From a virus, in the IMG/VR virus record IMGVR_UViG_3300030102_000736, positions 1,077 through 22,839 of that record: DNA of 21,763 bases; one strand, 5' to 3'. The position numbers and the translations under genes are program-made. The notes beneath the pieces are model-generated. The model was not told the DNA's origin, ran no database searches, and saw only the letters and a program-made list of their open reading frames with translations. This document shows, piece by piece, positions 779 to 21,763 of this stretch (positions are counted from its first letter, which is position 1; each line of letters begins with the position of its first letter).

Positions 779-3178
779 TTAACTAAACACATATGGTGCT
801 AATAAAACTTCACATACATCAAAATCCCCTATGTCTGGTGGTATGGGTAACTTGCTTGAATCTTCTAATTGTTTTACTGCTTGCTGATATAAATCATCTA
901 ATAAATTTTTGCTATACATATCAACAAAACTCTCTTTTACATAACTTATAAATTCTTCTATATGTGCAGCAGGTGAACCAAAACAATCGTGTATTGTACA
1001 GAATTGATTTAGACCACTAGCCTTACTTTTTGTTAATGCTAAATGTACATTAGCAGCATCTAAACTATGAACGAAGTTTGCAGCAAAACTCTGAGTAGAT
1101 TTTCTTTTATCAACTTCCTTTGTATCAGTAAGAAGTGACAACTTTACAGTACTGGTATGCAGTTTCGTGCGTATTCTTTTCATATTAAAGTTGTAATATT
1201 GCTGTTTAACATAAAAATTAGATGGTGTAATCCAAGATATATTTTTATCTTCTTGACCAAAACATCTTGCAACGTCTGTTAAATATTTCATTACTGTTAT
1301 ACATTTAGGGCTGATATTATTTACACTTTTCTCTATAATTTTTGCAAGATAATGATTATGTAAAAAGCAGTCTTTATCCCAAGACAACTCCTCATCACTG
1401 CTTACAAAGTAATCTTTAACAGCACTTGCAATACCAAAGGTCTTACCACTGTACGGTATCATCATCACAGGTTTTTTTATCATTTTTCTTGTAATTAATT
1501 TGTGATGTTTATACCAATCTTCAGCTAGGCATTGTTCATCACTCAGATCACGAAGCTCTTTTATTACCTGATCTTTAACGTCTTCATACAAGTCCTTCAC
1601 CTGATCATAGTTTTTAAGATTTACTTTTGCTGCAAGATTATCATCAAGAGACATGGCTGCAAAATGTTGAAAGCCATTATTTGTACCGTCAAGTAATACA
1701 GGATGCTTGCTTACATAGCCATACCCCTGTTCCAATAGCTCGTTAAAGTCCAGACACCAGGCAAGAAACTGCCAAGGTTCTTCTGCCTTACTCCATATAC
1801 TGATATAAGATTCTGGATTGCTTGCTATCTGTCTGGCTAAAGCTTCTCCTTCTGTCTTAGACCATTCAATACGTTCTTCATAACTGTATTTACTCATACC
1901 CCATGAGTTAGCACCTGCTATACCTAACCAATTCTTTGCTTTCTCATCTGTTATTGCTGCACCTTCGGCAAATCTATGTAAAGACCTTGCTAAATCATTA
2001 CCCTGTGGGTTGAAAATACCTGATACATAATAAATTCTGCCTGTAAAATCTGCCTGTGTAACGTGCCAAAAGGGTTCTTCTGCAAACTTGGTAGCAGTAT
2101 CAAGTAACATAATACATTGATACCTTTTCATACGATCATGTGCATTTTGATCATGTCGTAATACTTCTTCTCTTCTCCACCAAGATCTTGAGTCTTCATT
2201 AGTATCAATATCATATGGCTTTGGAGTTTGTGGCAGTGGTTCAGCATCTATCAGACAACCTACTTCTATACCTCTATCCCAACAGCTTTGAGCAATATCT
2301 AGAACAGTTGTATTTATCTCCCACTTTGTTTGTTGAAGACAATTCAGTGCTGTATAAAGTGCTGTTGGTTCTCTTTTTGTTACTTCTTCATGGTAAGTAA
2401 GGTCTTTTGATTTGATTGCCTTGATATGTCTTAGTCTTTTTGTATGAAAACCACCTTCAGTGGTGCTAGTCCAATCAATCGGCTGCTCTACGCATGGTTC
2501 ATACAATGGATAACAAGCTAATCTATTTTTGCGTTGTCGTTTAATCCAATCCATAGTGCCTTGCGTAAATTCAACATATGTTTTTGTTTGTTTACCTGAT
2601 CTGACAGTAGAAAGTTTAACCATCCCAACAGCACTAATCATTATATCTATAAGCTTTAAACCAACCTTAAGTTTGTCCTCCTTTGACCACGATTTAAAAA
2701 CAAAACCTCTGTTTCTCATGTGACCCATCATCATATTGCGTCTATATCTCTGATGATTGGTATCTGATATATGTTTCTTGACGTTTGTAAAATGTTTTTT
2801 ATCTTGCTGTTCAAATAAAGTAAACCTTTGCTCATCCTCCAGCATATGTCCTACCTGTAATGCTGTCTGTGTAGCTGTTTTGTTTTGAGAAGCACCGTCA
2901 ATAACACCTTTGAAAGTAATAAAAGCTATAACATCTACATCTTTAAATTCATGTAGTTTTATTGCTGCTGTAGCTTTTACCCCTGGTGTACCTCTCCAAG
3001 CCCTGTCAAGGAACTGTTGTATTGCTTCAACAAAAGGTAGAAGACCAGCTTTAATCATGCTCCTTGCATAATCTGTTTCTGATTCTCTACCCTTGGCTAA
3101 GTTGTTGTTAATGTTGCGTTGCCGTCTGTCAAAACCACGACTCCACATCCGATCTTCTAAATCAGTTTGCTTTGTCAT
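779..3178 (-). CDS. T7-type single-subunit DNA-dependent RNA polymerase
   Basis: This 799-residue protein is slightly shorter than T7 RNA polymerase (883) and carries all the core motifs. The region around residue 378 (DFTGRIYYVSG, then FNPQGND) matches the T7 segment that contains Arg425. Motif A is LLDGTNNGFQH, with metal-binding Asp497. Motif B has Arg564, Lys568 and Tyr576 with the same spacing as T7 Arg627/Lys631/Tyr639. Motif C is IHDCFG, with His730 and Asp731. The C-terminus ends in APYVFS, similar in position to the T7 FAFA foot. It would transcribe the phage middle and late genes in the host cytoplasm. Its start overlaps the zinc-ribbon gene by 17 bases and no Shine-Dalgarno site precedes it, so translation is probably coupled. 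Confidence 0.97.
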   Translation of the reverse strand: MTKQTDLEDRMWSRGFDRRQRNINNNLAKGRESETDYARSMIKAGLLPFVEAIQQFLDRAWRGTPGVKATAAIKLHEFKDVDVIAFITFKGVIDGASQNKTATQTALQVGHMLEDEQRFTLFEQQDKKHFTNVKKHISDTNHQRYRRNMMMGHMRNRGFVFKSWSKEDKLKVGLKLIDIMISAVGMVKLSTVRSGKQTKTYVEFTQGTMDWIKRQRKNRLACYPLYEPCVEQPIDWTSTTEGGFHTKRLRHIKAIKSKDLTYHEEVTKREPTALYTALNCLQQTKWEINTTVLDIAQSCWDRGIEVGCLIDAEPLPQTPKPYDIDTNEDSRSWWRREEVLRHDQNAHDRMKRYQCIMLLDTATKFAEEPFWHVTQADFTGRIYYVSGIFNPQGNDLARSLHRFAEGAAITDEKAKNWLGIAGANSWGMSKYSYEERIEWSKTEGEALARQIASNPESYISIWSKAEEPWQFLAWCLDFNELLEQGYGYVSKHPVLLDGTNNGFQHFAAMSLDDNLAAKVNLKNYDQVKDLYEDVKDQVIKELRDLSDEQCLAEDWYKHHKLITRKMIKKPVMMIPYSGKTFGIASAVKDYFVSSDEELSWDKDCFLHNHYLAKIIEKSVNNISPKCITVMKYLTDVARCFGQEDKNISWITPSNFYVKQQYYNFNMKRIRTKLHTSTVKLSLLTDTKEVDKRKSTQSFAANFVHSLDAANVHLALTKSKASGLNQFCTIHDCFGSPAAHIEEFISYVKESFVDMYSKNLLDDLYQQAVKQLEDSSKLPIPPDIGDFDVCEVLLAPYVFS

Positions 3179-3422
3179 TTGAGTATTGAGAGATAAGTCC
3201 TTTTAAATCATTCAGTAATTCATCGCAGTGACCACGCATAATATCAAGAGATTCCTTACCTTCATCAATCAGCTTGGCAAGTTCTTCCAAGCTGTACTCT
3301 CTTGTACTAAAGTTCTTACCACATTCCTTACAGGTTCTAGACCTCCAAAGATATGCAGCTTCCCTTTCTCTTGTATGTAAGACAATAGTATTGTCGCTGT
3401 TGCAGTTAGGACATTGAATCAT
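3162..3422 (-). CDS. Small zinc-ribbon protein (NrdR-like N-terminal finger)
   Basis: The product has 86 residues. Two CxxC pairs (Cys4/Cys7 and Cys31/Cys34) form a zinc ribbon. The second pair sits in RSRTCKECGKNFSTRE, which closely resembles the finger of the NrdR repressors. NrdR is about 150 residues and has an ATP-cone domain after the finger; that domain is absent and is replaced by a short, probably helical tail. A strong Shine-Dalgarno sequence (GGGAGG) precedes the ATG, one of the few in this window. The gene overlaps the small ORF before it by 17 bases and the RNA polymerase after it by 17 bases. It may bind DNA or RNA and affect early transcription, but the sequence does not show the target. 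Confidence 0.75.
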   Translation of the reverse strand: MIQCPNCNSDNTIVLHTREREAAYLWRSRTCKECGKNFSTREYSLEELAKLIDEGKESLDIMRGHCDELLNDLKGLISQYSNDKAN

Positions 3423-3582
3423 TATTATCCTCCCTTGTCATGTGTAGGTATTTAGATTCAAGTTTTTCAATACAAAGATCCCAGGCATCCTGTTCACTTA
3501 TGTCTAGCTTCTTAGCAATAGACTTTGCAAGCTCCCTTAAATGAGTAGCTATTGCTGTAAGGTTGTATGGATAATCACTCAT
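3406..3582 (-). CDS. Small early protein, 58 residues, unknown function
   Basis: The frame starts at the ATG at 3582, which shares one base with the TAA of the preceding gene. It ends inside the zinc-ribbon gene, overlapping it by 17 bases. The product begins MSDYPYNLTA and is charged and largely helical, with no membrane segment and no cysteine pairs. The tight packing with both neighbours on the same strand is the main reason to believe it is translated. I do not recognise the family. It belongs to the early operon that leads into the RNA polymerase. Confidence 0.65.
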   Translation of the reverse strand: MSDYPYNLTAIATHLRELAKSIAKKLDISEQDAWDLCIEKLESKYLHMTREDNNDSMS

Positions 3583-3911
3583 TATTTTTTCTCCAAACTA
3601 AAATTATCTAATAAAAATTTATAGTAATCTTTTTCAAGACTACCCCATTTAATTTTTTTCATTTCTGTTTGTTTTATGATTGAATCACCCATTAGACAAT
3701 CTTTTAATTCTGTTGTAGATGGAAACTTTAATGGACTTTTACCATTTGAAGTTAAGCACTGAAAAATTTTTTGTGGCCATGACTCCTCAAAAGATAAGGA
3801 TTCAATAGCATTGCAAAAAAGAGTAATAGTTTCACTATCTTTTTTATGTGGTTCTAACTTTTGTAGAACAAAATTCCATCTATCAATAGGCAAATCAAGT
3901 TTAAGTTTCAT
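3582..3911 (-). CDS. Early protein, 109 residues, unknown function
   Basis: The product begins MKLKLDLPIDRW. It is soluble and mixed-charge, with two cysteines that do not form a metal-site pattern. The ATG follows the preceding TAG with no gap, and a G-rich run (GGGGGG) lies about eight bases upstream and may serve as a ribosome-binding site. The stop shares one base with the next start. I recognise no domain. Its place in the early operon suggests a host-takeover or regulatory role, but that is inference from position only. Confidence 0.65.
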   Translation of the reverse strand: MKLKLDLPIDRWNFVLQKLEPHKKDSETITLFCNAIESLSFEESWPQKIFQCLTSNGKSPLKFPSTTELKDCLMGDSIIKQTEMKKIKWGSLEKDYYKFLLDNFSLEKK

Positions 3912-4721: not shown

Positions 4722-5459
4722 TTAAGCTTTAACCTTAGTCTTTTTGATAGCTTGTAAAGCTTTACTTGCTTTACTTCCTTTTGGTTGCGTACCATGTAGC
4801 AATAAAGCGAATGGTTCATTTTTTAAGCATCTACTATCATCCTTATCTATCTCATAAGGTTTATTTCTATGCAATATGCCTAGTGTTTCAGCTTCAATAA
4901 CTGAATTAACTACAATTGCATATCTTTTAAAATATCCCTTATGTATTAGATAGTCATACTTACCGCCCATAGAAGCAGTTAAGTAAAAATTATCTGGTAT
5001 AGATACATTAGTTCCAAAAAGGTTAAGACTTTTTGAATAGCAATAAAACTGAATACTAGGGTTAAGTTTAGCTACTGCTAACCAGGCCCTAAGATATTCT
5101 CCTGAGAAAAAATCCCCTGAGTCATGTATCCTTACTTTTTTAATGCTTTTTGTAAGATACTTATTTAATGATTTATTAATTAAATCAACAGCATCAAAAT
5201 TATTTAAAGCATCAACTAAAAGATCTAAGTTATATTTACGCTTTTGATATAAAGCCGTATACATAACTTCTTGTGACGCGGCATAACATCTAAACTCAGT
5301 GTTATTACCATCCTGTATAACTCTTTTATTATCTTTATTAATAGAAACAAAAGAGTGACATAAGCTAGCACCTGGACAGGTTTTACCAGCTGGTAAAGAA
5401 AAAATTAAAGTATCCTTAGATAGCTTTTTATTTCCCTTACTGAATTTCAATAAGTTCAT
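4722..5459 (-). CDS. GP88-like cysteine protein
   Basis: This 245-residue protein resembles the phage 'gene product 88' family. It has an N-terminal cysteine cluster KTCPGASLCHSF (Cys28, Cys34) with a further Cys58 in FRCYAASQE. A conserved core follows, RIHDSGDFFSGEYLRAW at residues 110-126, and then FYCYSKSLNL with Cys140. The C-terminus is basic. The cysteines could hold a metal or an iron-sulphur cluster, and the HDSGDFFS motif looks like an active-site loop, but the biochemical role of the family is not known to me. It is the first gene after the late-early junction, has its own promoter-like sequences upstream and a terminator downstream, and is probably among the first genes expressed after entry. 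Confidence 0.65.
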   Translation of the reverse strand: MNLLKFSKGNKKLSKDTLIFSLPAGKTCPGASLCHSFVSINKDNKRVIQDGNNTEFRCYAASQEVMYTALYQKRKYNLDLLVDALNNFDAVDLINKSLNKYLTKSIKKVRIHDSGDFFSGEYLRAWLAVAKLNPSIQFYCYSKSLNLFGTNVSIPDNFYLTASMGGKYDYLIHKGYFKRYAIVVNSVIEAETLGILHRNKPYEIDKDDSRCLKNEPFALLLHGTQPKGSKASKALQAIKKTKVKA

Positions 5460-8792: not shown

Positions 8793-9065
8793 ATGGAAGA
8801 ACAAGAAGAAAAAGAAGGTAACAGTCTGATTGCCAACGTGGTTCAGATGATTATACTTTTTTGGAGTTTGGGTGTAATTTCTTGGTCGTATTTTAATCCA
8901 AACCCTACAAGGCAAATTGATACTACCTTTGCGGCTGGATTATTGTCGGCTGTAACAGCCCAGTACGGTTTAAATATCAAAAAAAGCGGCAACGGTGACA
9001 ATAAGAAGTCAAAAGGTAAAGTTAATATAGTTGACAACAAAGACACTAACGTAGGAATCAAATGA
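8793..9065 (+). CDS. Small membrane protein, possibly holin-like
   Basis: The 90-residue product has a charged N-terminus (MEEQEEKEGN), a clear membrane segment at about residues 12-35 (ending ISWSYF), a second weaker one at about 45-63 (FAAGLLSAVTAQYG), and a very basic tail after it. Two membrane segments with a basic C-terminus and a small size fit a holin, the pore that times lysis, but also other small membrane proteins. It is the first gene of a plus-strand operon: its TGA overlaps the next ATG (ATGA). No endolysin is next to it, so the holin call is inference from size, topology and position. Confidence 0.6.
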   Translation: MEEQEEKEGNSLIANVVQMIILFWSLGVISWSYFNPNPTRQIDTTFAAGLLSAVTAQYGLNIKKSGNGDNKKSKGKVNIVDNKDTNVGIK

Positions 9066-9580
9066 AAAAACTAATTCCATTATTACTTTTTGCTTTTAGT
9101 TCTGCTTCTTACGCAGACATAACTCAAAAGTTCACAACCTCTGCACAGATTACTGTAGATATGCCATATAGCGTCACAAATAAGCTTGGAACGACTTATT
9201 CATTATCAGGTAATAACATAACTCCATCTGTAACTAGCGGAGGCTCTACAACCTCTGGAGCTATTGGTGGCTTGAATGTTGGATCGTTGACCGATTCAGT
9301 TCCAGCTTTAATACAGACTGATAAGGCTATAACAAGTGCTGGTTCTGCTTTTTCTTTAACGGAATCACTAACAGTAGGTGATGCCACACCATCTGCTATA
9401 ACACCATCATCAGGTATCTCTGCTTTACCTCATCTTGGAGGACAGACAACAGTGGGATCAGGTGGTACAGCAGGCAGTTTAGGTATGACCAGCTTATCCA
9501 GTGGAGTTCATACTTGTACAGCAGGTGGTAGTGGTACTAGCTGTATTGGACAAACAACTGTTACTATTACCATTGACTAA
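9062..9580 (+). CDS. Sec-exported protein of unknown function (first of a related pair)
   Basis: The 172-residue product starts with a textbook signal peptide, MKKLIPLLLFAFSSASYA, cleaved before DITQKF. The mature part is Ser/Thr/Gly-rich and looks beta-structured, with YSLSGNNI, GSAFSLTESL and a C-terminal TTVTITID. Two cysteines near the end (HTCTAGGSGTSC) could form a disulphide in the periplasm. Similar patterns in the next gene (YSASGNNI, GSPFSLQETI) show that the two are distant paralogues. The start overlaps the membrane-protein stop by four bases. The protein would be periplasmic, outer-membrane-bound or secreted. I do not recognise it. Confidence 0.75.
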   Translation: MKKLIPLLLFAFSSASYADITQKFTTSAQITVDMPYSVTNKLGTTYSLSGNNITPSVTSGGSTTSGAIGGLNVGSLTDSVPALIQTDKAITSAGSAFSLTESLTVGDATPSAITPSSGISALPHLGGQTTVGSGGTAGSLGMTSLSSGVHTCTAGGSGTSCIGQTTVTITID

Positions 9581-10010
9581 ATGGTTTTTGCTAATAATAA
9601 TATTAATACCTGCAAGAACTCTTGCAAATCCTGTTGTGCCTACCTTTCGTACAGGTAGTCAAACTACTAATTCTACATCCCAGAGTATTATTAATGAAAC
9701 AATTTCAAGCTATCAGTATCGAACTGGATATACATATTCTGCCAGTGGCAATAATATAAAAAGTAATGATGCAAATGGTTATATCAATCCAACACCATCA
9801 CAAGACGCTACTCAAACCATCAATAACGTCAATTTTTCATTTACTAGCCCTACATTGGAGACTGTTCCTAGATGGCAGATAGTAACAGAAGGTTCTCCAT
9901 TTTCTCTACAGGAAACAATCATAGCTCCAGGACTCGATACAATCACCAATATAAGCAGAACAATAAATACAACTACAACCGTAACTGTAGAAAGTACCTT
10001 TGGGCAGTAG
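9573..10010 (+). CDS. Sec-exported protein of unknown function (second of the pair)
   Basis: The TTG at 9573 gives MTKWFLLIIILIPARTLA followed by NPVVPTF, a complete signal peptide with a proper cleavage site; the longer frame from 9501 would put a random-looking stretch in front of it, so I choose 9573. This start overlaps the previous stop by eight bases. The mature part of about 128 residues is rich in Thr, Ser and Asn and beta-like, and repeats the YSxSGNNI and GSxFSLxE patterns of the protein before it. No cysteine pair is present. Function unknown; export to the periplasm or beyond is the solid part of the call. Confidence 0.7.
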   Translation: MTKWFLLIIILIPARTLANPVVPTFRTGSQTTNSTSQSIINETISSYQYRTGYTYSASGNNIKSNDANGYINPTPSQDATQTINNVNFSFTSPTLETVPRWQIVTEGSPFSLQETIIAPGLDTITNISRTINTTTTVTVESTFGQ

Positions 10011-10588
10011 CTCTAATGCTTTGTCCTTCAAAGGTTTTAGCTAATACAACCGTAGCAAGTCCATCTAGTAATGCACAAGGAACTGTTAATAACAATGCCA
10101 CCATGATTGCACCACAATCAACACCACAGTTCCGTATGTCACAAGGTATTGTTTGTAGTTCTCCTAGCCTTACTATTACCCCATATGTAACTGATGCGTG
10201 GAGTTTTAATAGACCTATTGAAACAATGACGAGACAAAATATATATGACGAAGATACAGGTGCTATTAAGTATGTACAGGAAACACCTAGATTTGAGAAG
10301 GATAACTATAACTTAAATTATGGAATCTCTGCACAGATCAGTATTCCATTAGGTAAAGCACCTGATTTATGTCTAAGAGCTACAGAAGTAAATATTAAAA
10401 ATCAGGAATTGCTATACCAGAAACAGGCATTGGAAATCGCACTCTTTAGACTTCGAGTATGTGGGGAGCAAGCGAAACTGGGTGTTACCTTTACTGGAAA
10501 ATATGCAGAGATCTGTGAAGGTATAAAGGTTACAGTTCCACCAAATCAAGTTATTCCTCACTCTCATTCTTTGACTTCCGAGAAGTAA
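9872..10588 (+). CDS. Exported protein of unknown function; start uncertain
   Basis: The mature part is clear: after KYLWAVALMLCPSKVLA comes NTTVASPSS and then a domain of about 170 residues with Cys pairs, SAQISIPLGKAPDLCLRA, and a helical stretch with RLRVCGEQ. The hydrophobic core of the signal lies mostly upstream of the nearest ATG (10016). The only earlier in-frame ATG is 9872, which gives an unusual 43-residue Asn/Tyr/Arg-rich leader that overlaps the preceding gene by 139 bases. Either the long leader is real or a non-standard start is used close to the signal. The 3' end overlaps the minus-strand gene at 10551 by 38 bases. The protein is the last of the plus-strand operon. I do not recognise its family. 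Confidence 0.65.
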   Translation: MADSNRRFSIFSTGNNHSSRTRYNHQYKQNNKYNYNRNCRKYLWAVALMLCPSKVLANTTVASPSSNAQGTVNNNATMIAPQSTPQFRMSQGIVCSSPSLTITPYVTDAWSFNRPIETMTRQNIYDEDTGAIKYVQETPRFEKDNYNLNYGISAQISIPLGKAPDLCLRATEVNIKNQELLYQKQALEIALFRLRVCGEQAKLGVTFTGKYAEICEGIKVTVPPNQVIPHSHSLTSEK

Positions 10589-12883: not shown

Positions 12884-13252
12884 TTAACTAGGTTCTGTAG
12901 GAAAAGTAACAGATGTCATATCTAAATTACCATCTGAATCAAGTTTAGGCGATGCACTAGCTGGTAAATCTCTGAGTGCTTGTCTATAAGTTTTCCAATC
13001 TGCATCATTTGATAAAGTCAAATCTCTTGATTGTGTCCAATCACAAGCAGATATTCTTCTATTTCTTTCTCTTCTAAGTAATCTCATTGGTTCTGCATTA
13101 GTCAACCTTGTAATTTCTGCATTTACTTCGGATTCAGTAGGTTTTGTTTGACTTTCATCTTTCCACTCAAGTCCAGAGTATTCCATTCCTCTTAAAACCC
13201 AACTTGCATTTGGTTTTAAAGACTTGATGGCATCAGTTATTTCTATAATCAT
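12884..13252 (-). CDS. Tail-fibre assembly chaperone-like protein, copy 2
   Basis: The 122-residue product is closely related to the protein at 13893-14252: both share SLKPN, YSGLEW, AEPMRLLR.ERN, ACDW, WKTYRQ.LRDLPA and VTFPTEPS. The segment RLLRRERNRRISACDWTQ followed by YRQALRDLP is the signature of the phage tail assembly chaperone family (Phage_tail_APC type). Such proteins fold or attach the adhesin encoded next to them. The start overlaps the stop of the preceding fibre gene by four bases (ATGA). It is part of the second fibre-chaperone module. Confidence 0.75.
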   Translation of the reverse strand: MIIEITDAIKSLKPNASWVLRGMEYSGLEWKDESQTKPTESEVNAEITRLTNAEPMRLLRRERNRRISACDWTQSRDLTLSNDADWKTYRQALRDLPASASPKLDSDGNLDMTSVTFPTEPS

Positions 13253-13892: not shown

Positions 13893-14252
13893 TTAACTAG
13901 GTTCGGTAGGAAAGGTAACAGAACTCATATCCAAATTACCATTTGCGTCTAACTTTGGCGATGCAGTTGCAGGCAAATCACGCAAACTTTGACGATATGT
14001 TTTCCATGCTGTTGATAAAGTCAAATCAGAACTTGCTCGCCAATCGCAAGCTGTTAATCTACTATTTCTTTCTACTCTTAAAAGCCTCATAGGTTCTGCA
14101 TCTGTAAGTCTTTTCAACTCTGCATCTATTTCAGATTCAGTTGGAGGTGTATCACTTTCAAGCCATTCCAAACCAGAATAGTCTGTACCCCTCCAAACGT
14201 ATTGCTTGTTAGGTTTTAAACTTTTTAAAGCATAATATTTGTCGTAAATCAT
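13893..14252 (-). CDS. Tail-fibre assembly chaperone-like protein, copy 1
   Basis: The 119-residue product carries the chaperone signature RLLRVERNSRLTACDWRA and YRQSLRDLPATASPKL and ends in FPTEPS like the second copy. The two are roughly 60-65 percent identical by eye, and their DNA is also similar at the 3' ends, so the duplication is not ancient or has been kept by selection. It starts on the last base of the preceding fibre stop (TAATG). It presumably assists the fibre protein encoded just before it. Confidence 0.75.
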   Translation of the reverse strand: MIYDKYYALKSLKPNKQYVWRGTDYSGLEWLESDTPPTESEIDAELKRLTDAEPMRLLRVERNSRLTACDWRASSDLTLSTAWKTYRQSLRDLPATASPKLDANGNLDMSSVTFPTEPS

Positions 14253-14803
14253 TATGCACCAACCTCTATTAATATCATTTCTGCTGTCTGACTATTACTG
14301 CATATATTAAGACCTGAGTTTATATCATTTTCTTTTGTTTGAATCTTATATGTAGTTGAAGATGTTGTATTAGGACTATCTAAAAAAGAAAAACTATGAG
14401 GTCGGGCAAATACTGTATAATTAACATTAGCGACATTAATAGCTTGATAATATTGCAGCGCACTTCCAGCCTTAATTTCTGTACTACCTCTAACTATATT
14501 AAAACCCCAGCCATAAACATTGTAAGGTGAAGCAAACATACTTGTATTTACTGGAATCCAACCAACAATTAAAACTTTACTTGAAGTTGCGGCTGGTGTA
14601 ATTGTTGCAGTTAAACCAGTATCTACATAACTTGTACTATTAAAATTTGTTTGTGTTGAAAATGAATTTTGAACAACTTGCAATGCTTTACCACCAACAC
14701 CAGTTGCTAGATCATCAGCAGTAATAGAACCATTTACAATATTTGCTGAATTTATCTGCAATCCAGTTATGGTATCGTTTGAGCCGTCAAGAACTAAAGC
14801 CAT
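14252..14803 (-). CDS. Tail-fibre-like protein, module 1
   Basis: The 183-residue product starts MALVLDGSNDTITGLQINSA, has a short beta-helical connector (NIVNGSITADDLATG), then a globular domain with LQVVQ, SYVDTGLTATI, ATSSKVLIVGW, FLDSPNTTSSTTYKIQT and MILIEVGA. This is the common architecture of small receptor-binding proteins attached to T7-type fibres of marine phages. The start shares one base with the stop of the T7-type fibre gene and the stop shares one base with the chaperone gene start. Confidence 0.75.
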   Translation of the reverse strand: MALVLDGSNDTITGLQINSANIVNGSITADDLATGVGGKALQVVQNSFSTQTNFNSTSYVDTGLTATITPAATSSKVLIVGWIPVNTSMFASPYNVYGWGFNIVRGSTEIKAGSALQYYQAINVANVNYTVFARPHSFSFLDSPNTTSSTTYKIQTKENDINSGLNICSNSQTAEMILIEVGA

Positions 14804-16530
14804 TATGGAATCGTTACAACTGAAGGACTATTTATTGTTAGTGTAGCACCAGACGCAATAGTTAATGGCCCTGCAACTAAAGCGTTATGATTTGATGAAA
14901 TTGTGTAACTTGTATTCATTTCATTTTCAGATTCAAAGAAAATTTGCTCACCGCCTCCACCAGTTCCACCACCGATACCAGTAAGGTTAGATCCATCTAT
15001 TGCAGGTAATGTACCAGTTATGTTTGCAGCAGGGATATTAGTTAAATTAGCTGCACTTATCGCAGGTAAAGTACCTGTAATATTAGCAGCAGGTATTGCT
15101 GTTAAGTTAGCTGCTGAAGCTGCTGGTAACGTAGCAGGGAATCTAGCATCTGGTACAGTTCCAGAAGTTAAATTAGATGCACTTAAAGCTGTTAAATCTA
15201 TTGCAGACCAGGATGTATTTCCGTTTGCATCAGTAGTTAAGAACTGACCATTCTGTATATTTTGAGGAAATGTAAAAGTATAACTTGCACTAGCACTATG
15301 AGGAGGTGATTTAAGTTTTATACCATGACTATTTTGTGAACAGTTAAGTTGTAATGTTCCATCAGCACTACTACCATCACCTTTGATCTCAACAACACCA
15401 GTGCCGTTTGGATTTAATTTTATATTGCCATTAGTTGTGCTTGTATTAATCTCATTTGCTTGAACATCTAAGTTACCACCTAATTGTGGGGTAGTATCTT
15501 CTACCACGTTACCGATAGCACCACCACCGCCACCACCTGCATTAGCAGCCCATTTAATACCTGTAGCTTCTGAACTGTCAGCAGTTAATATATATCCATT
15601 CTGTCCAACAGGAAGGGCTGTAGGATCACCAGAACCATCACCTACAAGTATTTCACCTTTAGTATCAAGATCGCTGTTCATAACAGCACCAGCAGCATCT
15701 ACATTAGTGGCATCTGTTACATCAGCATTTGCTTCTATTGCATTTAATTTACTATGATCTGCATCTGTAAATACGTTACTGTCAGAAGCCGATTCGACTA
15801 ATGCTCTTATCTCACTAGCAGTTTGATCTGTTGTAGCACCTGCTTCGATAGCGTTCAGTTTGCTGTGGTCTGCATCAGTAAATACATTAGAATCCGAAGC
15901 TGACTCTACAAGCGTTCTTATCTCAGCAGCAGTTTGGTCAGCAGTTGCACTTGCTTCAATTCCATTCAGTTTACTATGATCAGCATCAGTGAATACGTTG
16001 CTATCACTAGCACTTTCAACAAGTGTTCTTATTTCTGCTGCGGTCTGATCTGCTGTAGCAGCAGTTTCTATACCATTAAGCTTTGTATGATCTGCGTCAG
16101 TAAAAACATTGCTATCTGTTGCACTCTCTACTAATGTTCTGATCTCTGCTGCTGTCTGATCTGCTGTAGCTCCTTCTTCAATGCCACCTAACTTATCTGT
16201 AATCTCTTGTTGAGCAAATAAGACTTGATCTGCGTTGGTATCTAAATCTGTTTCTGTTAAAACACTACCGTCTTGAAAATCTACCTTCTTTGCACTTATA
16301 TCTGTATCTCTTTGAAACTTAATAGCAACACCATTACCAGGTTCATTACCACTGGTAAAGGTAATCTGGGTTGCACTGGTAAATGTGTAGTGAGTTGTTA
16401 TGGTTTTTAGTACACCACCTACAGTTACATCTACTTCTGCTTCTGAAAGATAGGAAAAAGAAATACTAAACGGACCAGCAGTGCCATTGCCTGTGTGGTT
16501 TGTAAAAGATGCTGCGGTGTTAGTTGCCAT
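14803..16530 (-). CDS. Tail fibre with T7 gp17-type N-terminal domain
   Basis: The 575-residue product attaches the fibres to the tail. Residues 1 to about 115 form the T7 tail-fibre N-terminal domain (SFTNHTGNGTAGPFSISFSY at 8-27, TETDLDTNADQVLFAQQE at 92-109). Four 37-residue tandem repeats follow (117-264), each with the pattern ADQTAAEIRTLVES and NVFTDADHSKLN. A connector and a glycine-rich stretch then lead to a beta region and a run of 20-residue NLT.IPAANITGTLPAI repeats near residues 465-520. The end is a short beta segment ending VVTIP. T7 gp17 has 553 residues. The receptor-binding tips are probably supplied by the next genes. Confidence 0.9.
   Translation of the reverse strand: MATNTAASFTNHTGNGTAGPFSISFSYLSEAEVDVTVGGVLKTITTHYTFTSATQITFTSGNEPGNGVAIKFQRDTDISAKKVDFQDGSVLTETDLDTNADQVLFAQQEITDKLGGIEEGATADQTAAEIRTLVESATDSNVFTDADHTKLNGIETAATADQTAAEIRTLVESASDSNVFTDADHSKLNGIEASATADQTAAEIRTLVESASDSNVFTDADHSKLNAIEAGATTDQTASEIRALVESASDSNVFTDADHSKLNAIEANADVTDATNVDAAGAVMNSDLDTKGEILVGDGSGDPTALPVGQNGYILTADSSEATGIKWAANAGGGGGGAIGNVVEDTTPQLGGNLDVQANEINTSTTNGNIKLNPNGTGVVEIKGDGSSADGTLQLNCSQNSHGIKLKSPPHSASASYTFTFPQNIQNGQFLTTDANGNTSWSAIDLTALSASNLTSGTVPDARFPATLPAASAANLTAIPAANITGTLPAISAANLTNIPAANITGTLPAIDGSNLTGIGGGTGGGGEQIFFESENEMNTSYTISSNHNALVAGPLTIASGATLTINSPSVVTIP
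14974..15132 (-). repeat. 60-base repeats coding for the distal fibre shaft
   Basis: Units of 60 bases (15001-15060, 15061-15120 and flanking partial units) code for the 20-residue pattern NLT.IPAANITGTLPAI. Such a pattern fits a trimeric beta-helical fibre shaft. Confidence 0.7.
15739..16182 (-). repeat. Four 111-base tandem repeats in the tail fibre gene
   Basis: Four in-frame copies code for 37 residues each (residues 117-153, 154-190, 191-227, 228-264) and are highly similar in protein, less so in DNA because synonymous positions differ. The third-position divergence suggests old repeats under selection, with copy number able to change by recombination. Confidence 0.85.
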
Positions 16531-16532
16531 GA

Positions 16533-19500
16533 TTAATTAAGTTGGTTAAACCCCTCAAGGATGTCATTGTTAGCTTCTTGCCTTATGGCAGATTGCAACT
16601 GTTTATATTCTAATTCACGTTCTGGATTTTTACTTAACCAAACTTTTTTACCAGCCTTTTTGTATTTATTTACAATATCTCTTAATATATCTTCGGCTAA
16701 ATCTCTATTAGCTTCCTGTGCTTTAACTTCTATATCCATATTATTCTGTTCTATTAATTCACCTCTTACACTTTTCATTAATGCTTGAAAATCTTTTTGT
16801 TGAATCCTGTTATGCAAAGCTCTTACCATAGTTATACCATTAATTTTTACAAAAGCAGTTTCTTCAATTAAATCAAGATGTTCGTCATAAGTTAGTTCTA
16901 TCCCACTTCCTATAGCTTGACCACTAGGAAGTCTTCCAATATTTAATTCATCTGATGGTTGTGTAATTCTTGCACCAATATCATCAAGAGTTGTTAGAAC
17001 ATTGTTGTTGATGCTATCTGTTTCTTTTATAGGATTAAGAATATTCATAGTATCAGGACCAAAACCAACAGGATATTCAATAACAGAACCAGTTATAAAG
17101 TTTCTCATTGGTCTTAGACCACCAGTATAACCAGGTATTGTTGCAGCCAATTCATTGTGAAATTTTCTAAGTACTACAAATCCATCATCACCTGCTCTTA
17201 CTTTTTTATCTAGGATTCTTCGATCACCTGGTAATAGACCATATGAAGTTGTAAGACCACTTCTTTTTACTGATCTTCCAAAGGAACTGAAAGGGTTAAT
17301 AGTTGCTGCTGCTCTTCTGGCAAGCCAACTTTCTAATTTATAAGGCTTACCTAATAAATCAGCTAATTCAGTAATACCTTGTAGATAAGTTTTGTTTGTA
17401 ATATTACGACCTAATGCAACAGAAGCAGCAACACCAAAATCATCACGATCCTGTTTGCTAAGACTACCTGTAATAGCTGCTGCATCGGCAGCCATCATAA
17501 GAAAAGAAGACCAAGGATCTAATCTTTTAAAACTTACATATTTATATCTAGGCTTTCCATCTTTACCCATGCGTACATTACCATTCTCATCTCTTAAAAG
17601 AAATCTAAAACTGTAAGGTTGCCAACCTGTAGCTCGTTTCTGATTAAGCATATTGAAGTCAGAAGGACCACCACCTGTTATTGCTAACTCAGACATAGGA
17701 TCATTAATTGAATAGGCTGTAAGACCTGCAATAGCCCAAATAGAACCACCAAGTATCATTTCACCTTTTGCTTTTGCTACTACAGATGGATCAGTGCTTT
17801 TTAACGCTTGTCTGTATTCCTGTAACAACATATTTACACCAGGAGTTCTTCTTACCTGTGTTTTAAATATATTTATTGGTGTTCTTACAAATGGAAAAAC
17901 TATTCGACCTGCTGGATGTCTTGCCACTCCTTGTATTGCACCACCTAAACTACCTTCTGGTAAATCAGCAGTAAATGTAGTCTCAGCAGCATATTGCTGT
18001 GCTTTTTCGTATAGATCTAAAACAGACTTATCTTTAACATTTGCCATGCTGTTTTTATTAACAATTTCAATAGTGCCATCAAACTGTCTTTGTATATGAT
18101 CTTGTAAATCAGCACCTTGCAAACCTTTTCTCATACCATCTTCCCAAGCACTAGCTTTTACATAAGCTCTAAAGTTTACTTGTTTAAAAAATTCATCTTC
18201 TGCAAGTAAAAAACGACTAGGTAAACGAATAATTGTACCAAAAGTATTAACTATATTTGCTAAATTTCCATCACCTTCCATTCTTACTTGAAAGCGATCA
18301 GCATCTTGAATCATCGCACCAGGGTTAACAATATTATCTTCAATCTGAAAAGATAGTTTTGCACCTTTTAAAGAATCAGTAATAGATGACATTAGATAAT
18401 AAAGTTCCTTACCACCTCTGATAGCACCTGTCATATCACCTTGAGCAAAAGAACCAAGTGTTTGTTCTAACGGTCTAGCTAAAGTATTTAAACCAGTAGA
18501 AAGAATGTTGACAGCGTGTGTTTCTGGTCCTGATAATATTGAGTTTATAAATATTTCGTTTTGAACTTTTAGTCCTCTCATTAGTTTGCTTTCATTAGCC
18601 ATCTTCTGCAAGGCTTGAGGATTACCTTGTGCAGCTTGTAGTTTTTTTGTAATTATTCTTAGTTTTTTCCAAGATGCCTTATCACCTTTTTCAGCAGCAT
18701 CTAATATTTCTTGCATTGAAAATTCAGCTAATGGATCTGTAGGTTCTTTAACTGTTCCTCTAATATCAGTAGCTTGATCTATTGCTTTTTCAGTTGGTGT
18801 TCGACCTGTTAGATCTTCTACAGAAGCAGCAACTTTGCCTACTCCACCACCTGCTCTGTTTGCAGCTAATGTCTGTGCAGGTACTGTTTTGAGTGGTTTG
18901 TTAAGAGTAATAAGACCATCTAGTACTTTTGCTTCTCTAATAAATTGTTTTTTTAATTCTTCAGAAAATCCACTTTTGTTACCTGTGGCTAAAGTTTCAT
19001 CAATAGTTTTTGCTAATGAAGCTAGGTTGATAGCATTTTTATTCATCAACTGATTCATTGCAATTAATGTTGCAGGTAAGTCTTCTTCTCCCCCTCTGCC
19101 ATATCTAGCGTTAAATAATCTTGCAGATTCAATAACTTCTGCTGGTAATAGATCGTTTGCATTTTTGACCATATCAGCAAAAGTTCTTTTGTAAGGCCAA
19201 GCATTATTAGCGTCTAATTTTTTTAATTCATCTGCTCTTTTTAAAATAAGTTCTTGCACATCAGGATCTCCACCGCCTGTAAATTTAGGATTAAATGTAG
19301 TTTGTACTTTTGGATCTGCTAAAGCGTCAAGATCTACTTTATTAATATCTAAGGAATTAGCTGGATCAAAATATATTCTTACTTGATGTAGTCTTTTACC
19401 TTTACCTGCTTTCTTTCCTCCTTGATGTGTTAAACCACCAAAACCTTCTCTTTGTAATTCTTCAGTAAAAGAAGAAAATAAGTCTGCTGTAGTATTAGCA

Positions 19501-20795
19501 CTAAGATCATTAGCATTAGAAATTAATTTTATTTCATCATAAATTTGAGCGATACTAGCATTTGAACCAACATTATCTAAAGCTCTATCAATAATATCAA
19601 CTTCGTCATAAGCATCAACATCAAAAATGTTACGGAGTTGATCTATTCTTTCTGGTGTCGCAGGTGCGTCTAAATCAAAAAACTTTACAGGTTGTTTTTC
19701 AGTGACTTTATAAACAATACCAGTAGGTTTTTTACCTTTTACTCTGTTTTTCTTTTGGTATTTAGCAGCAGTTACTAAATCTTCTGTTACATAAAAACCA
19801 TCTCCATATAAATTTTCTACAGCTTTACCAAATTCACCACCTTCCACAAGGTTTATTTCACTAGCAGCACCATGATAAAACTCGTTTTGTCCTCTTGTAT
19901 CAGGTAAATCAAACTTTACTGGTGTTGTATTTTTAGGTGTTACCTTAGTAGGTTGTTTATCAATACTAAGATCAATTATTTCATCACCAAGATTATCAAC
20001 AACATTATCTGTCATTAATATTTCATCTCTTCTTGATAATCTGTTAATGACTCTTTCATATAACTCAGGTGTTTTTTTGATTGCTTTTAGACCAAGACCT
20101 AAAGCAGTAAGAGCTTCACCTGCTAATAATCCACCTGTTGCCTGTCTGAAACGTGCTTCAGCTACACCTATTTCTTCTGGTGTTTTTGCTTTTAAAAGAT
20201 CACTTATTGGAGTTGCAAGTCTTGGGTGCTTGTCAATCATATTGAACAAGTTTTCTTCATAAGGATCTTGAACAACAGCATCAGTAATAAAACCTGCAAC
20301 AGCATTTCTAGTCCAAGCATTACCCATTCCTACAAGTTTTGTACCTTTTAAGGTTTTACTAAGAACACCAGCAGGTAGTAAAAACTGTGTTATAGCCTGT
20401 GGTACTGTATAAGCCCAATCTTCTTTATCGCCTTTCACCTCAAGACCTAATGCCTGTAGATCTATCAGTTCATTATTATCGTATGGATTGCCAACAGTGA
20501 AATCATAAATATCATCTACAAATTCAACAGTTTCATTAACAGCTTTTAATGGGCCAGTTAAAGTACCCCTAATAACTTTGGAAGTAGTAGTTTTTTTTAA
20601 TTTTTCATCTATTTTTTTTCTTTTTGCTATACCTTTATCTCGTATTTCTTGTCTGTTTTGTTTAATTTCTTCTAAAGACCTTTTATCACCTAGAAATGTA
20701 TTATCAAAAAAATCTACAGTTCTAGCTTGTGTATCTTGTATGGTTTGATCAAGATTTTGTAAAAGATTTTTTTTATTTGAAGGTGTTTCAGTCAT
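16533..20795 (-). CDS. Large internal virion protein (gp16 position) with an ADP-ribosyltransferase-like domain
   Basis: The 1420-residue protein lies just before the tail fibre gene, as T7 gp16 (1318) does. Gp16 proteins are ejected with the DNA and help it cross the envelope. Residues 1-300 are helical, with hydrophobic patches around 133-240. Residues about 303-485 look like an ADP-ribosyltransferase fold: EFYHGAAS (Tyr307, His308, Gly309), YGDGFYVTEDLVTAAKYQ (Gly331 to Gln347), GIVYKVTEKQPVKFFDLD, and GFGGLTHQGG with LHQVRIYFDP at the end (Gln471). The remaining 900 residues are mostly helical with a hydrophobic segment near 1010-1030. T7 gp16 has its transglycosylase at the N-terminus; none is visible here. 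The start lies two bases after the stop of the lysozyme-like protein. Confidence 0.85.
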   Translation of the reverse strand: MTETPSNKKNLLQNLDQTIQDTQARTVDFFDNTFLGDKRSLEEIKQNRQEIRDKGIAKRKKIDEKLKKTTTSKVIRGTLTGPLKAVNETVEFVDDIYDFTVGNPYDNNELIDLQALGLEVKGDKEDWAYTVPQAITQFLLPAGVLSKTLKGTKLVGMGNAWTRNAVAGFITDAVVQDPYEENLFNMIDKHPRLATPISDLLKAKTPEEIGVAEARFRQATGGLLAGEALTALGLGLKAIKKTPELYERVINRLSRRDEILMTDNVVDNLGDEIIDLSIDKQPTKVTPKNTTPVKFDLPDTRGQNEFYHGAASEINLVEGGEFGKAVENLYGDGFYVTEDLVTAAKYQKKNRVKGKKPTGIVYKVTEKQPVKFFDLDAPATPERIDQLRNIFDVDAYDEVDIIDRALDNVGSNASIAQIYDEIKLISNANDLSANTTADLFSSFTEELQREGFGGLTHQGGKKAGKGKRLHQVRIYFDPANSLDINKVDLDALADPKVQTTFNPKFTGGGDPDVQELILKRADELKKLDANNAWPYKRTFADMVKNANDLLPAEVIESARLFNARYGRGGEEDLPATLIAMNQLMNKNAINLASLAKTIDETLATGNKSGFSEELKKQFIREAKVLDGLITLNKPLKTVPAQTLAANRAGGGVGKVAASVEDLTGRTPTEKAIDQATDIRGTVKEPTDPLAEFSMQEILDAAEKGDKASWKKLRIITKKLQAAQGNPQALQKMANESKLMRGLKVQNEIFINSILSGPETHAVNILSTGLNTLARPLEQTLGSFAQGDMTGAIRGGKELYYLMSSITDSLKGAKLSFQIEDNIVNPGAMIQDADRFQVRMEGDGNLANIVNTFGTIIRLPSRFLLAEDEFFKQVNFRAYVKASAWEDGMRKGLQGADLQDHIQRQFDGTIEIVNKNSMANVKDKSVLDLYEKAQQYAAETTFTADLPEGSLGGAIQGVARHPAGRIVFPFVRTPINIFKTQVRRTPGVNMLLQEYRQALKSTDPSVVAKAKGEMILGGSIWAIAGLTAYSINDPMSELAITGGGPSDFNMLNQKRATGWQPYSFRFLLRDENGNVRMGKDGKPRYKYVSFKRLDPWSSFLMMAADAAAITGSLSKQDRDDFGVAASVALGRNITNKTYLQGITELADLLGKPYKLESWLARRAAATINPFSSFGRSVKRSGLTTSYGLLPGDRRILDKKVRAGDDGFVVLRKFHNELAATIPGYTGGLRPMRNFITGSVIEYPVGFGPDTMNILNPIKETDSINNNVLTTLDDIGARITQPSDELNIGRLPSGQAIGSGIELTYDEHLDLIEETAFVKINGITMVRALHNRIQQKDFQALMKSVRGELIEQNNMDIEVKAQEANRDLAEDILRDIVNKYKKAGKKVWLSKNPERELEYKQLQSAIRQEANNDILEGFNQLN

Positions 20796-20797
20796 TG

Positions 20798-21763
20798 TTA
20801 TTTAGAATTTTGTTTAAACTTTCCTTGTTCTGATAAAAAGTCAAGGGCATTTTTGTAATGAGAACCTCCTTGATTTAATTCTGGTAATGCACTTTCAACT
20901 GATGTTCCAAAAGAATCTTTTCTTTTCAAGCCATCACTCTGAAGAGTAGAGACATTACCTGTCAATATAGCTGCATATATCTCTTTTACACCATGTCCTT
21001 TTTTAACTCCTCTGTCTTTTAAATATCTAACAACTGGTCCTTTCATCTGTTCTTCAAAGGTCATATCATCTTTATATCCATACTGTTTACGTTCTGGAAT
21101 ACCAAATTGAATTAATCCTTTGTAGTTGCCACCTTCTCCACCTGTTATCTGATGATCAAAAGTACCCATTGTTTCTTGTGATATTACAGATGCAAGATCT
21201 TCTGGTTTAACTCCTAACTCTTTTGCTGCTTCAACAATAGCCTGTTGTTTACTGCTTGAGGTAATGGTAGGTGTTGTTGTTTCAATAGTCGTATCAGTAG
21301 AAATATTATCTTTGAGTATCAATTTATCACCAGGTCTTATTAAATTCGGATTCTTTATGTTGTTAAGTTTTATAAGATCAGCAACTGTAATTCCATTTTC
21401 TGTTGCTATAGATGTTAATGAATCACCTCTTTTTACTTCAATAATACTATTATCTTCTTCAGCATCTAATGCTTTTTCTCTTTCTATATCTTCTTTAGTA
21501 GATTCTGTAAAAAATCCAGCTTCCAAATCACTATTAGCATCACCTTCTATATCGCTTAAATCATTTTCTCTTTCTTTTTCTTTATCATCGTCTTTACCTG
21601 ATTCAATAGTTACACCTGTTAATTTTCTTGCTTGTTCAATATATTTACTCTTAACTTCTTCTATCTTGTTAATAATATCTAAAGTTGTTGCATTACGACC
21701 TTCTTCACTTAGACGATATTGATAAAGTTCTAATTTTGCTTTGTTATAGAAATCGGTAACTTT
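20798..21763 (-). CDS. Virion-associated LysM and lysozyme-like protein, 5' end outside the window
   Basis: The frame is open to the right edge, so the 321 visible residues are the C-terminal part of a longer protein, probably in the T7 gp15 position. The first 100 visible residues are charged and helical. A LysM domain follows (about 108-151: VKRGDSLTSIATENGITVAD to IRPGDKLIL), which binds peptidoglycan. A lysozyme or transglycosylase-like domain comes next, with VISQETMGTF (Glu197 as candidate catalytic acid), YKGLIQFGIPER and a conserved Tyr-Gly. An apparent start at 21526 would be a TTG in the middle of the open frame and is not the real start. The protein probably opens the cell wall locally when DNA enters. 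No signal peptide is seen in the visible part. Confidence 0.85.
   Translation of the reverse strand, partial: KVTDFYNKAKLELYQYRLSEEGRNATTLDIINKIEEVKSKYIEQARKLTGVTIESGKDDDKEKERENDLSDIEGDANSDLEAGFFTESTKEDIEREKALDAEEDNSIIEVKRGDSLTSIATENGITVADLIKLNNIKNPNLIRPGDKLILKDNISTDTTIETTTPTITSSSKQQAIVEAAKELGVKPEDLASVISQETMGTFDHQITGGEGGNYKGLIQFGIPERKQYGYKDDMTFEEQMKGPVVRYLKDRGVKKGHGVKEIYAAILTGNVSTLQSDGLKRKDSFGTSVESALPELNQGGSHYKNALDFLSEQGKFKQNSK

What the first reader, a model, noticed from the sequence alone, without database searches (positions are those of the whole stretch)
16533..20795. ADP-ribosyltransferase-like domain inside a virion protein expected to be ejected into the host
Residues about 303-485 of the gp16-position protein show the pattern of an ADP-ribosyltransferase: YHG, then GxGFYVT with a downstream A..Y, then a conserved core strand and a QVxxxFDP end. 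T4 injects the transferase Alt with its DNA to modify host RNA polymerase; I know of no well-described equivalent in T7-like phages. The domain would act within minutes of infection, before any phage gene is expressed. The pattern is seen; the activity and the ejection are inferred.
Basis: partly seen in the sequence, partly recalled or inferred. Interest (0 to 1): 0.8.

Follow-up and report, generated by a model that had tools for sequence, protein, structure and literature searches.

The report
Swappable transferase-like domain in phage protein
A marine T7-like virus of bacteria carries, inside a protein it probably injects into its host, a domain predicted to fold like enzymes that modify proteins with ADP-ribose, and related viruses gain, lose and trade this domain as a unit.

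Summary
The gene is on the minus strand (1420 aa). Residues 300-489 are predicted to fold as an ADP-ribosyltransferase (ART); the best solved match is a domain of the cyanophage A4 pre-ejectosome (Z 13.9), then diphtheria toxin, Arr, RES toxins and PARPs (Z up to 7.5). Y307, H308 and Y335 are invariant in 51 of 51 distinct sequences that cover them. The third catalytic residue is not glutamate (Q471 is K in 3 of 49; V472 is invariant), so activity is unproven.

The stronger result is evolutionary: the domain is a cassette. Phages 98-99% identical in the C-terminal backbone lack residues 276-495 (11 with, 35 without among 46 close relatives). The same cassette, 95-98% identical and sharing silent sites, sits in proteins whose backbones are only 19-36% identical. 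The backbone tree needs at least 15 gains or losses.

Virion-delivered "polyvalent" ARTs are already described, and cultivated cyanophages P60 and S-CBP42 hold a different ART-like domain in the homologous protein. So: a new variant of a known kind, best read as an exchangeable injected effector. Ejection, activity and target are inferred.

The parts
16533..20795 (-). 1420-aa internal virion (ejection) protein, gp16 position, that carries the domain
   Evidence: ORF; PHROG 6651 E 2.7e-42 at residues 694-1172; tblastn matches in 53 phage records, the features under the 40 listed mostly named internal virion protein or hypothetical
19311..19970 (-). Cassette, residues 276-495: replaced by about 13-25 unrelated residues in near-identical phages
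   Evidence: coordinates
19329..19898 (-). ART-like domain, residues 300-489
   Evidence: AF2 model pLDDT 81.7, pTM 0.81; fold matches; DUF3990 E 7.4e-5, below cut-off
19869..19877 (-). YHG, residues 307-309 (strand 1; putative NAD-contacting His308)
   Evidence: invariant in 51 of 51 distinct sequences that cover it
19785..19805 (-). GDGFYVT, residues 331-337 (strand 2; putative nicotinamide-stacking Tyr335)
   Evidence: G331, G333, Y335 invariant in 51 of 51
19362..19394 (-). RLHQVRIYFDP, residues 468-478 (strand 5; third active-site position, no Glu)
   Evidence: R468, H470, V472 invariant in 49 of 49; Q471 in 46 of 49, K in 3
17280..18716 (-). Conserved backbone, residues 694-1172, match to PHROG 6651 internal virion protein
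   Evidence: backbone profile also finds P60 gp34, E 1.4e-37 in a 3-protein search
20798..21763 (-). Upstream gene (gp15 position), cut by the window edge: LysM plus peptidoglycan-hydrolase-like C-terminal part; context
   Evidence: LysM E 5.1e-15; PHROGs endolysin/transglycosylase matches
14803..16530 (-). Downstream T7-type tail fibre; context that fixes the gp16 position
   Evidence: Phage_T7_tail E 2.9e-19

Best explanation
The window protein is the large ejection (internal virion) protein of a marine T7-like phage. Its residues 300-489 are an ART-fold effector domain carried as a removable cassette in the N-terminal third of the protein. Most likely mechanism: the protein is built into the capsid core, leaves with the DNA at infection, and the domain uses host NAD+ to mono-ADP-ribosylate a host molecule early in infection, as T4 Alt does by a different active site. 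The cassette is gained, lost and exchanged between distant phages, which points to a host- or defence-specific role rather than a structural one. Shown here: the predicted fold, the invariant His/Tyr, the missing Glu, the presence/absence pattern and the exchange. Inferred: packaging, ejection, NAD+ use, transferase activity, target.
For: AF2 model pLDDT 81.7, pTM 0.81. Foldseek: the cyanophage A4 pre-ejectosome is the one PDB match with E under 0.001 (1.8e-5), followed by RES toxins (from 2.8e-3), diphtheria toxin (0.12) and PARP1 (0.71). VIA-align: 9k3a_B Z 13.9, rmsd 3.4 A, 168 aligned; diphtheria toxin Z 7.5 (rmsd 3.6 A, 127 aligned); Arr Z 7.5 (rmsd 3.7 A, 97 aligned); nearly all of the 50 listed rows are ART-superfamily proteins by title or by family as I recall it. 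Of 23 BFVD matches with E up to 0.001, 6 are named ART-PolyVal(-like) or PolyVal ADP-ribosyltransferase, the rest bear other names or none. Y307/H308/Y335 invariant in 51 of 51. One relative, L103, carries this domain in a 3028-residue open frame with a true ART-PolyVal (E 4.9e-16) and LPD22. Cassette: L006-L010 match at 96-99% over residues 496-1420 without it; 11 with and 35 without among 46 close relatives that show the site. Exchange: L082/L083 are 98% identical in the domain against 25% (N) and 27-33% (C) outside it, with fourfold-site identity 62/70 in the domain of L082 against 52/109 in its C-terminal backbone. The tree needs 15 changes of the ART label over 87 rows, at least 13 forced by starred branches; shuffled mean 28.8.
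Against: No catalytic Glu: Q471 is K in 3 of 49, and V472 stands at the Glu position of H-Y-E relatives, so it could be an inactive or binding-only domain. Both Pfam ART matches of the window domain are below the curated cut-off. No sequence match to a solved ART. The profile match to five other phage ARTs covers only 43 columns (hhalign E 1.1e-4, probability 57). Apart from A4, the listed Z-scores are 5.5-7.5, a range that the tool warns may mean only a common arrangement. The backbone model is poor (pLDDT 65.5) and gave no clear match to a solved ejection protein. No convincing match to the domain in 50,697 phage records, so nothing is known of virion content or ejection.
Confidence: 0.62

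Rival explanations
1. Degenerate or non-catalytic ART fold: the domain kept the NAD-pocket His/Tyr but lost the third catalytic residue, and serves as a binding module (for NAD+, ADP-ribose or a nucleic acid end) or as an in-capsid packing domain.
For: No Glu in strand 5; K at 471 in 3 of 49. Extra invariant residues H457, R468, H470 (49 of 49) could be a binding surface.
Against: Y307/H308/G333/Y335 are invariant across homologues down to about 41% identity to the window domain, which a dead enzyme need not keep. PARPs of the H-Y-I and H-Y-Y type are listed as mono-transferases (PMC7955679 passage). A domain missing from phages 98-99% identical in the C-terminal backbone is not needed for packing.
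Confidence: 0.25
2. Counter-defence ART: the injected domain modifies a host defence protein (or the phage's own incoming DNA ends) rather than RNA polymerase, and the patchwork distribution follows the defence systems of different host strains.
For: Presence/absence among near-identical phages and repeated exchange. The same site in other phages carries a different ART (L048, ART-PolyVal E 0.001, below cut-off) or an HExxH metallopeptidase-like insert (L054, motif only), i.e. it looks like an effector slot. An anti-CRISPR protein (6kyf) is among the fold matches, Z 6.5, rmsd 3.6 A, 123 aligned; that it is AcrIF11, an ART, is recalled.
Against: No direct evidence for any target; the pattern fits any host-specific target equally well.
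Confidence: 0.35
3. Alt-like takeover of host transcription: the domain modifies host RNA polymerase early, before the phage's own T7-type RNA polymerase (window 779-3178) is made.
For: T4 Alt precedent and the parallel proposed for polyvalent ARTs fused to N4-like RNA polymerase (PMC5512222).
Against: Alt has an R-S-E active site, this domain H-Y. Near-identical phages do without it, so early transcription does not need it.
Confidence: 0.15
4. Assembly artefact: the cassette is a chimeric join in a metagenome contig, not a real gene structure.
For: The window comes from a virus record of IMG/VR type, and the homologues with this domain are IMG/VR contigs.
Against: The same in-frame architecture recurs in 11 of 46 close relatives, whose contig names come from 11 different IMG data sets, and the junction residues recur. 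The domain diverges within the family from 98% to about 41% identity to the window's.
Confidence: 0.03

Closest known systems
Internal virion protein of cyanophages P60 (gp34) and S-CBP42 (S-CBP42_0011)
   Same: Homologous backbone (profile E 1.4e-37 for P60 in a 3-protein search; S-CBP42 tblastn E 9e-25), same place before the tail fibre, and an ART-like domain N-terminal to the backbone.
   Different: Their ART-like domain is another family: P60 reads YHAT, GSGVY, ETFLFDP (H-Y-E); S-CBP42's is 73% identical to it (its residues not inspected). Only a weak match to this family's profile, i-Evalue 0.0012 in a 3-protein search, and Pfam finds no family in P60 gp34 at E up to 0.1; it was found through the ART of L048 (tblastn E 1e-5 over 55 residues).
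Cyanophage A4 (Anabaena phage A-4L) pre-ejectosome protein, PDB 9k3a chain B, taken to be A4L_27
   Same: Best structural match of the domain (Z 13.9, 168 residues). By its PDB title and the title of its paper it is part of a pre-ejectosome in the capsid. The stretch reads YHGT...GSGTYFS at the matching residue numbers.
   Different: The ART lies near the C-terminus (about 1420-1603 of 1717). The backbone shows only a weak blastp stretch (81 residues, E 0.008) and no profile match. Strand 5 reads DTTLVINPD. The A4 paper was not readable here. Pfam finds no family in A4L_27 at E up to 0.1.
ART-PolyVal domains of polyvalent proteins (Iyer et al. 2017, PMC5512222)
   Same: ART of the H-Y kind in a large virion-associated protein predicted to be injected. 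Co-occurs with this domain in L103.
   Different: That family is described as H-Y-D; here Q/K471 and V472, and the Pfam score is below cut-off.
T4 Alt
   Same: Proposed mode of action: a virion-packaged ART that modifies host proteins early (described in PMC5512222).
   Different: R-S-E active site, separate head protein of a myovirus; no sequence link found here.
Pfam DUF3990 (ART clan)
   Same: Best Pfam match, 15 of 15 homologues.
   Different: Only residues 306-368 of the window protein match, below the gathering score; described as of unknown function.

Membership tests
ADP-ribosyltransferase superfamily (fold) | Split beta-sheet ART fold | tested here: met
   AF2 pLDDT 81.7, pTM 0.81; 9k3a_B Z 13.9 rmsd 3.4 A 168 aligned, 1dtp Z 7.5 rmsd 3.6 A 127 aligned; Foldseek E 1.8e-5 for 9k3a_B. 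Predicted, not solved.
ADP-ribosyltransferase superfamily (H-Y group) | His in strand 1 and Tyr in strand 2, invariant | tested here: met
   H308 and Y335 in 51 of 51 distinct sequences that cover them; 1 of 52 is gapped there
H-Y-E ARTs (PARP / diphtheria type) | Catalytic Glu in strand 5 | tested here: not met
   Positions 471/472 are Q or K / V in 49 of 49; E in the P60, L048 and L103 ARTs at the aligned place
Polyvalent-protein ART clade (Tox-ART-HYD2) | Asp in strand 5 (as described in PMC5512222) | tested here: not met
   Q/K471 and V472; description read
Pfam ART-PolyVal PF18760 | Score at or above the gathering cut-off (31.2 bits) | tested here: not met
   13.9 bits, E 0.097 for the window domain; 13 of 15 homologues match at E up to 1, best 2.5e-4
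Pfam DUF3990 PF13151 | Score at or above the gathering cut-off (32.2 bits) | tested here: not met
   22.9 bits, E 7.4e-5 for the window domain
Alt/VIP2 ARTs (T4 Alt) | R-S-E active site | tested here: not met
   YHG and GxGFY instead; definition
T7-like gp16-position ejection protein | Gene order and homology to internal virion protein D | tested here: met
T7-like gp16-position ejection protein | Present in the virion and ejected into the cell | not testable with these tools
   needs virion proteomics and infection assays
Polyvalent proteins | Several effector domains in one virion-associated polypeptide | tested here: inconclusive
   One effector domain found in the window protein; relatives have ART-PolyVal + LPD22 + this domain (L103) or an added segment (L047)
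ADP-ribosyltransferase (activity) | NAD+-dependent ADP-ribosyl transfer | not testable with these tools
   biochemical assay required

The most novel reading that the evidence does not exclude
A family of injected ARTs with a non-canonical active site (His-Tyr plus an invariant HxGG...AG..KR.H[QK]V.IY stretch in place of the catalytic Glu/Asp) is traded as a warhead cassette through one dedicated slot in marine phage ejection proteins. Other phages fill the same slot with a different ART or a metallopeptidase-like domain, so the ejection protein works as a general, swappable delivery platform for anti-host enzymes.
Probability: 0.35. Interest if true: 0.78.

Novelty: new variant of a known kind. 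Interest (0 to 1): 0.57.

Why it matters
If true, T7-like phages of the open ocean deliver enzymes as well as DNA, and change them quickly by exchanging one cassette. Natural near-isogenic pairs (ejection proteins 98-99% identical outside the cassette, with and without it) and cultivable relatives with a homologous protein and another ART-like domain (P60, S-CBP42) make the question 'what does an injected ART buy a small lytic phage?' directly testable. The missing glutamate also makes the family a test of how far the ART active site can vary and still work.

Tried and rejected
Sequence search of the domain against solved structures: nothing relevant (single sequence; profile). The weak SseL hits there and in NCBIfam cover the middle part of the domain at E 0.026-0.98 and are read as chance.

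Domain in bacterial or archaeal genomes (single sequence, close relatives only): 50 stretches matched a pattern, 0 encode a relative. In plasmids: no match. In isolated phages: 20 records at E up to 10, best 0.02, in a mycobacteriophage gene labelled metalloprotease, read as chance.

Pfam on the isolated phages' proteins P60 gp34, PfWMP3_26 and A4L_27: 0 families each at E up to 0.1, so their ART-like domains rest on motif, tblastn to L048's ART (P60), Foldseek (PfWMP3_26) or the solved structure (A4).

Backbone structure (residues 506-1420): model of low confidence. The searches gave mostly helical matches with Z up to 5.7 and no Foldseek E under 0.1; DEV gp72 ejection protein appears at Z 5.1, rmsd 6.0 A, 103 aligned, too weak to use. 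Profile search of the backbone against solved sequences: nothing (best E 0.16).

Relative of the alternative ART of L048: only its own contig was found.

The register of the third catalytic residue could not be settled: the fold tools return ranges, not residue pairs. Counting gaplessly back from the range ends puts V472 on PARP's Glu and Q471 on diphtheria toxin's Glu (Glu numbers recalled), so the structural matches do not decide; the sequence alignment of strand 5 favours V472. In A4 and PfWMP3 an Asp stands where Q471 would align and a Thr where V472 would.

'Everything outside the domain is merely fast-evolving' was rejected because silent sites in the domain are also shared.

Cassette GC (0.320) does not stand out from the gene (0.337; sliding range 0.309-0.373), so composition gives no hint of a foreign source.

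Papers: Hou et al. 2025 on cyanopodophage A4 is not held; I know it only from the PDB title and a reference list. Of PMC5512222 I saw passages and one section; of PMC9503650, PMC7955679, PMC9038755 and PMC12810830 passages only. Searches listed no paper whose title or abstract start is on an ART in a T7-like ejection protein; the lists of 45 (15 of 76) and 47 (10 of 35) were capped, and most listed papers were not opened. The unread A4 paper may discuss its domain.


Full report
WHAT IS THERE. The reported coordinates hold one long gene, on the minus strand, of 1420 aa. It matches PHROG 6651 'internal virion protein' over residues 694-1172 (E 2.7e-42), is followed by a T7-type tail fibre and preceded by a gene with LysM and peptidoglycan-hydrolase-like parts. 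Its C-terminal part matches 53 phage records by tblastn, most of them Pelagibacter, Roseobacter and cyanobacterial phages; the features under the 40 listed matches are mostly called internal virion protein (D) or hypothetical. In HTVC011P, Syn5, HTVC200P and ProddE the homologous gene lies directly before a tail fibre; in CRP-114 the next gene is called collagen-like protein, in SS120-1 hypothetical. The window is part of a 22839-base virus record; it also has a T7-type RNA polymerase and terminase.

IS THE DOMAIN AN ART? The motif pattern is above chance (3 of 20000 shuffles, chosen after the fact). The domain matches DUF3990, a member of Pfam's ART clan (passage of PMC7955679), at E 7.4e-5; of 15 homologues 15 match DUF3990 (best 1.8e-6) and 13 match ART-PolyVal (best 2.5e-4), but the window domain is under both curated cut-offs. 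AlphaFold2 on an alignment of 40 sequences gives pLDDT 81.7 and pTM 0.81. Against solved structures the best match is chain B of the cyanophage A4 pre-ejectosome (Foldseek E 1.8e-5, the only one under 0.001; VIA-align Z 13.9, rmsd 3.4 A, 168 aligned, chain residues 1420-1603), then diphtheria toxin and Arr (Z 7.5 each), RES toxins, cholix, KptA/Tpt1 and PARPs. By title, or by family as I recall it, nearly all of the 50 listed rows are ART-superfamily proteins; their Z of 5.5-7.5 alone would be weak by the tool's own warning. Against predicted viral structures 23 matches have E at or below 0.001, of which 6 are named ART-PolyVal(-like) or PolyVal ADP-ribosyltransferase. The A4 stretch itself reads YHGT...GSGTYFS. 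Profile comparison with five other phage ARTs is weaker: 43 columns, E 1.1e-4, probability 57.

THE ACTIVE SITE. Over 52 distinct domain sequences, Y307, H308, G309, G331, G333 and Y335 are invariant in the 51 that cover them. H457, R468, H470, V472, I474 and Y475 are invariant in the 49 that cover them. Q471 is Q in 46 and K in 3 (L018, L114, L045). So the His/Tyr pair is kept and the usual strand-5 Glu is absent. In three other phage ARTs (P60 gp34, L048, L103) a Glu stands five residues before the D/N of the F(D/N)-like turn, where this family has V472; A4 and PfWMP3 have Thr there, after an Asp. PARPs with I, L or Y in this place exist, and the H-Y-I and H-Y-Y ones I saw are listed as mono-transferases (PMC7955679 passage). 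So mono-transfer is possible and a dead domain is not excluded.

THE CASSETTE. A search with six patterns, all outside the domain, found 285 relatives, of which the best 80 were kept as 79 distinct loci. Of these, 46 show the site and have a C-terminal backbone at least 75% identical to the window's; 11 have the domain and 35 lack it (loci cut off before the site were not counted). L006-L010, 98-99% identical to the window in the C-terminal backbone, have about 13-25 other residues in place of residues 276-495. Conversely, in L082, L083, L086, L088, L089, L091 and L094 the domain is 92-98% identical to the window's while the N-terminal backbone is 25-36%, residues 506-720 are 19-27% and residues 721-1380 are 31-33% identical. 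At the DNA level the match of L082, L083, L086-L091, L094 and L095 to the window gene stops at or near the domain's edges. Silent sites tell that this is not only purifying selection: fourfold sites agree in 62 of 70 codons in the domain of L082 but in 52 of 109 in its backbone. L056 is a chimera: N part 81%, domain 98%, C part 28-39%. On a tree of the C-terminal backbone (87 rows: 39 with the domain, 46 without, 2 with another insert) the ART label needs 15 changes, at least 13 forced by well supported branches; random labels need 28.8 on average, so it is clustered but very mobile (a quick tree with some long branches that meet, and some rows may be mislabelled where a contig ends near the site). 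L083 and L086, with distant backbones, keep the same gene order, with an endolysin-like gene before and a tail fibre after.

OTHER FILLINGS OF THE SLOT. At the same place L054 has about 340 residues with an HExxH motif followed by a DEFFAE stretch (31 of 20000 shuffles give an HExxH), metallopeptidase-like by motif only: Pfam and NCBIfam found nothing. L048 has a different ART (ART-PolyVal E 0.001, below the cut-off). L047/L118 add a segment of about 170 residues behind the ART. L004, L005, L012, L015, L017 and L018 have about 92 residues inserted within the domain. L103 carries this domain in a 3028-residue open frame together with ART-PolyVal (E 4.9e-16) and LPD22; L109, L113 and L117 carry it in open frames of 2063-2457 residues.

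HOW IT MOST LIKELY WORKS. Inference from the above: the ejection protein is packaged, leaves with the DNA, and its ART-like cassette modifies a host target with ADP-ribose early in infection. Because the phage's nearest relatives do without it, the target is more likely a strain-specific obstacle (defence, or a host factor whose modification helps only in some hosts) than a universal step such as early transcription. Shown: fold prediction, residue pattern, distribution, exchange. Not shown: packaging, ejection, NAD+ use, transfer, target.

RELATION TO KNOWN SYSTEMS. Polyvalent proteins with ARTs, predicted to be packaged and injected, were described by Iyer et al. 2017 (PMC5512222; passages, section 'ARTs' read), with H-Y-D as the described active site and the N4-like-RNAP protein of Roseovarius Plymouth podovirus 1 as prototype. 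A 2022 survey reports 18% of podoviruses coding for components of the NAD+-ADPr network (PMC9503650, passages). New here, as far as my searches show: an ART-like family without strand-5 Glu/Asp in the T7-like gp16-position protein, and its behaviour as a cassette traded between distant backbones. Isolated relatives P60 and S-CBP42 carry a different ART-like domain (H-Y-E in P60) in the homologous protein, unrecognised by Pfam in P60, which makes the question testable in culture. Searches (some lists capped, most papers not opened) showed no title on this; the A4 structure paper could not be read.

VERDICT.

Noticed in passing
window 8793-10588, + strand: Four consecutive, partly overlapping ORFs on the opposite strand to their neighbours match PHROGs of unknown function (21865, 564, 650, 848); the second starts like a secreted protein (MKKLIPLLLFAFSSASYA). 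ORFs 9501-10010 and 9872-10588 as listed overlap by over 100 bases.
   Followed up: partly
window 12884-13252 and 13893-14252, - strand: Two similar tail-fibre-assembly-like genes (both phrog_4912), each beside its own small gene, suggest a duplicated fibre/chaperone module.
   Followed up: partly
window 14803-16530, - strand: T7-type tail fibre with several near-identical repeats of about 37 residues (DQTAAEIRTLVESASDSNVFTDADHSKLNGIE and linker).
   Followed up: no
window 4722-5459, - strand: Gene matching Pfam GP88 'Gene product 88' (E 1.5e-42), with no function given.
   Followed up: no
L054, about 2856-3909: The ART slot is filled by an HExxH metallopeptidase-like insert in a phage otherwise close to L053/L055, which have an empty slot.
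   Followed up: partly
L048 5900-8700: A different ART (FHGT, GEGFYIT, EIVLF) in the same slot; the gene is broken between frames on this contig.
   Followed up: partly
L004, L005, L012, L015, L017, L018: inside the ART domain, near the residue equivalent to 357: About 92 extra, mutually similar residues inserted between the helix after the second strand and the third strand of the ART domain.
   Followed up: no
L047 7471-7974: A segment of about 170 residues behind the ART with no convincing Pfam match (E 0.0075 at best), possibly a further effector module.
   Followed up: partly
L103 606-9689: Polyvalent protein (3028-residue open frame) with LPD22, ART-PolyVal and this ART family, and a strong match to phrog_9880 of unknown function.
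   Followed up: partly
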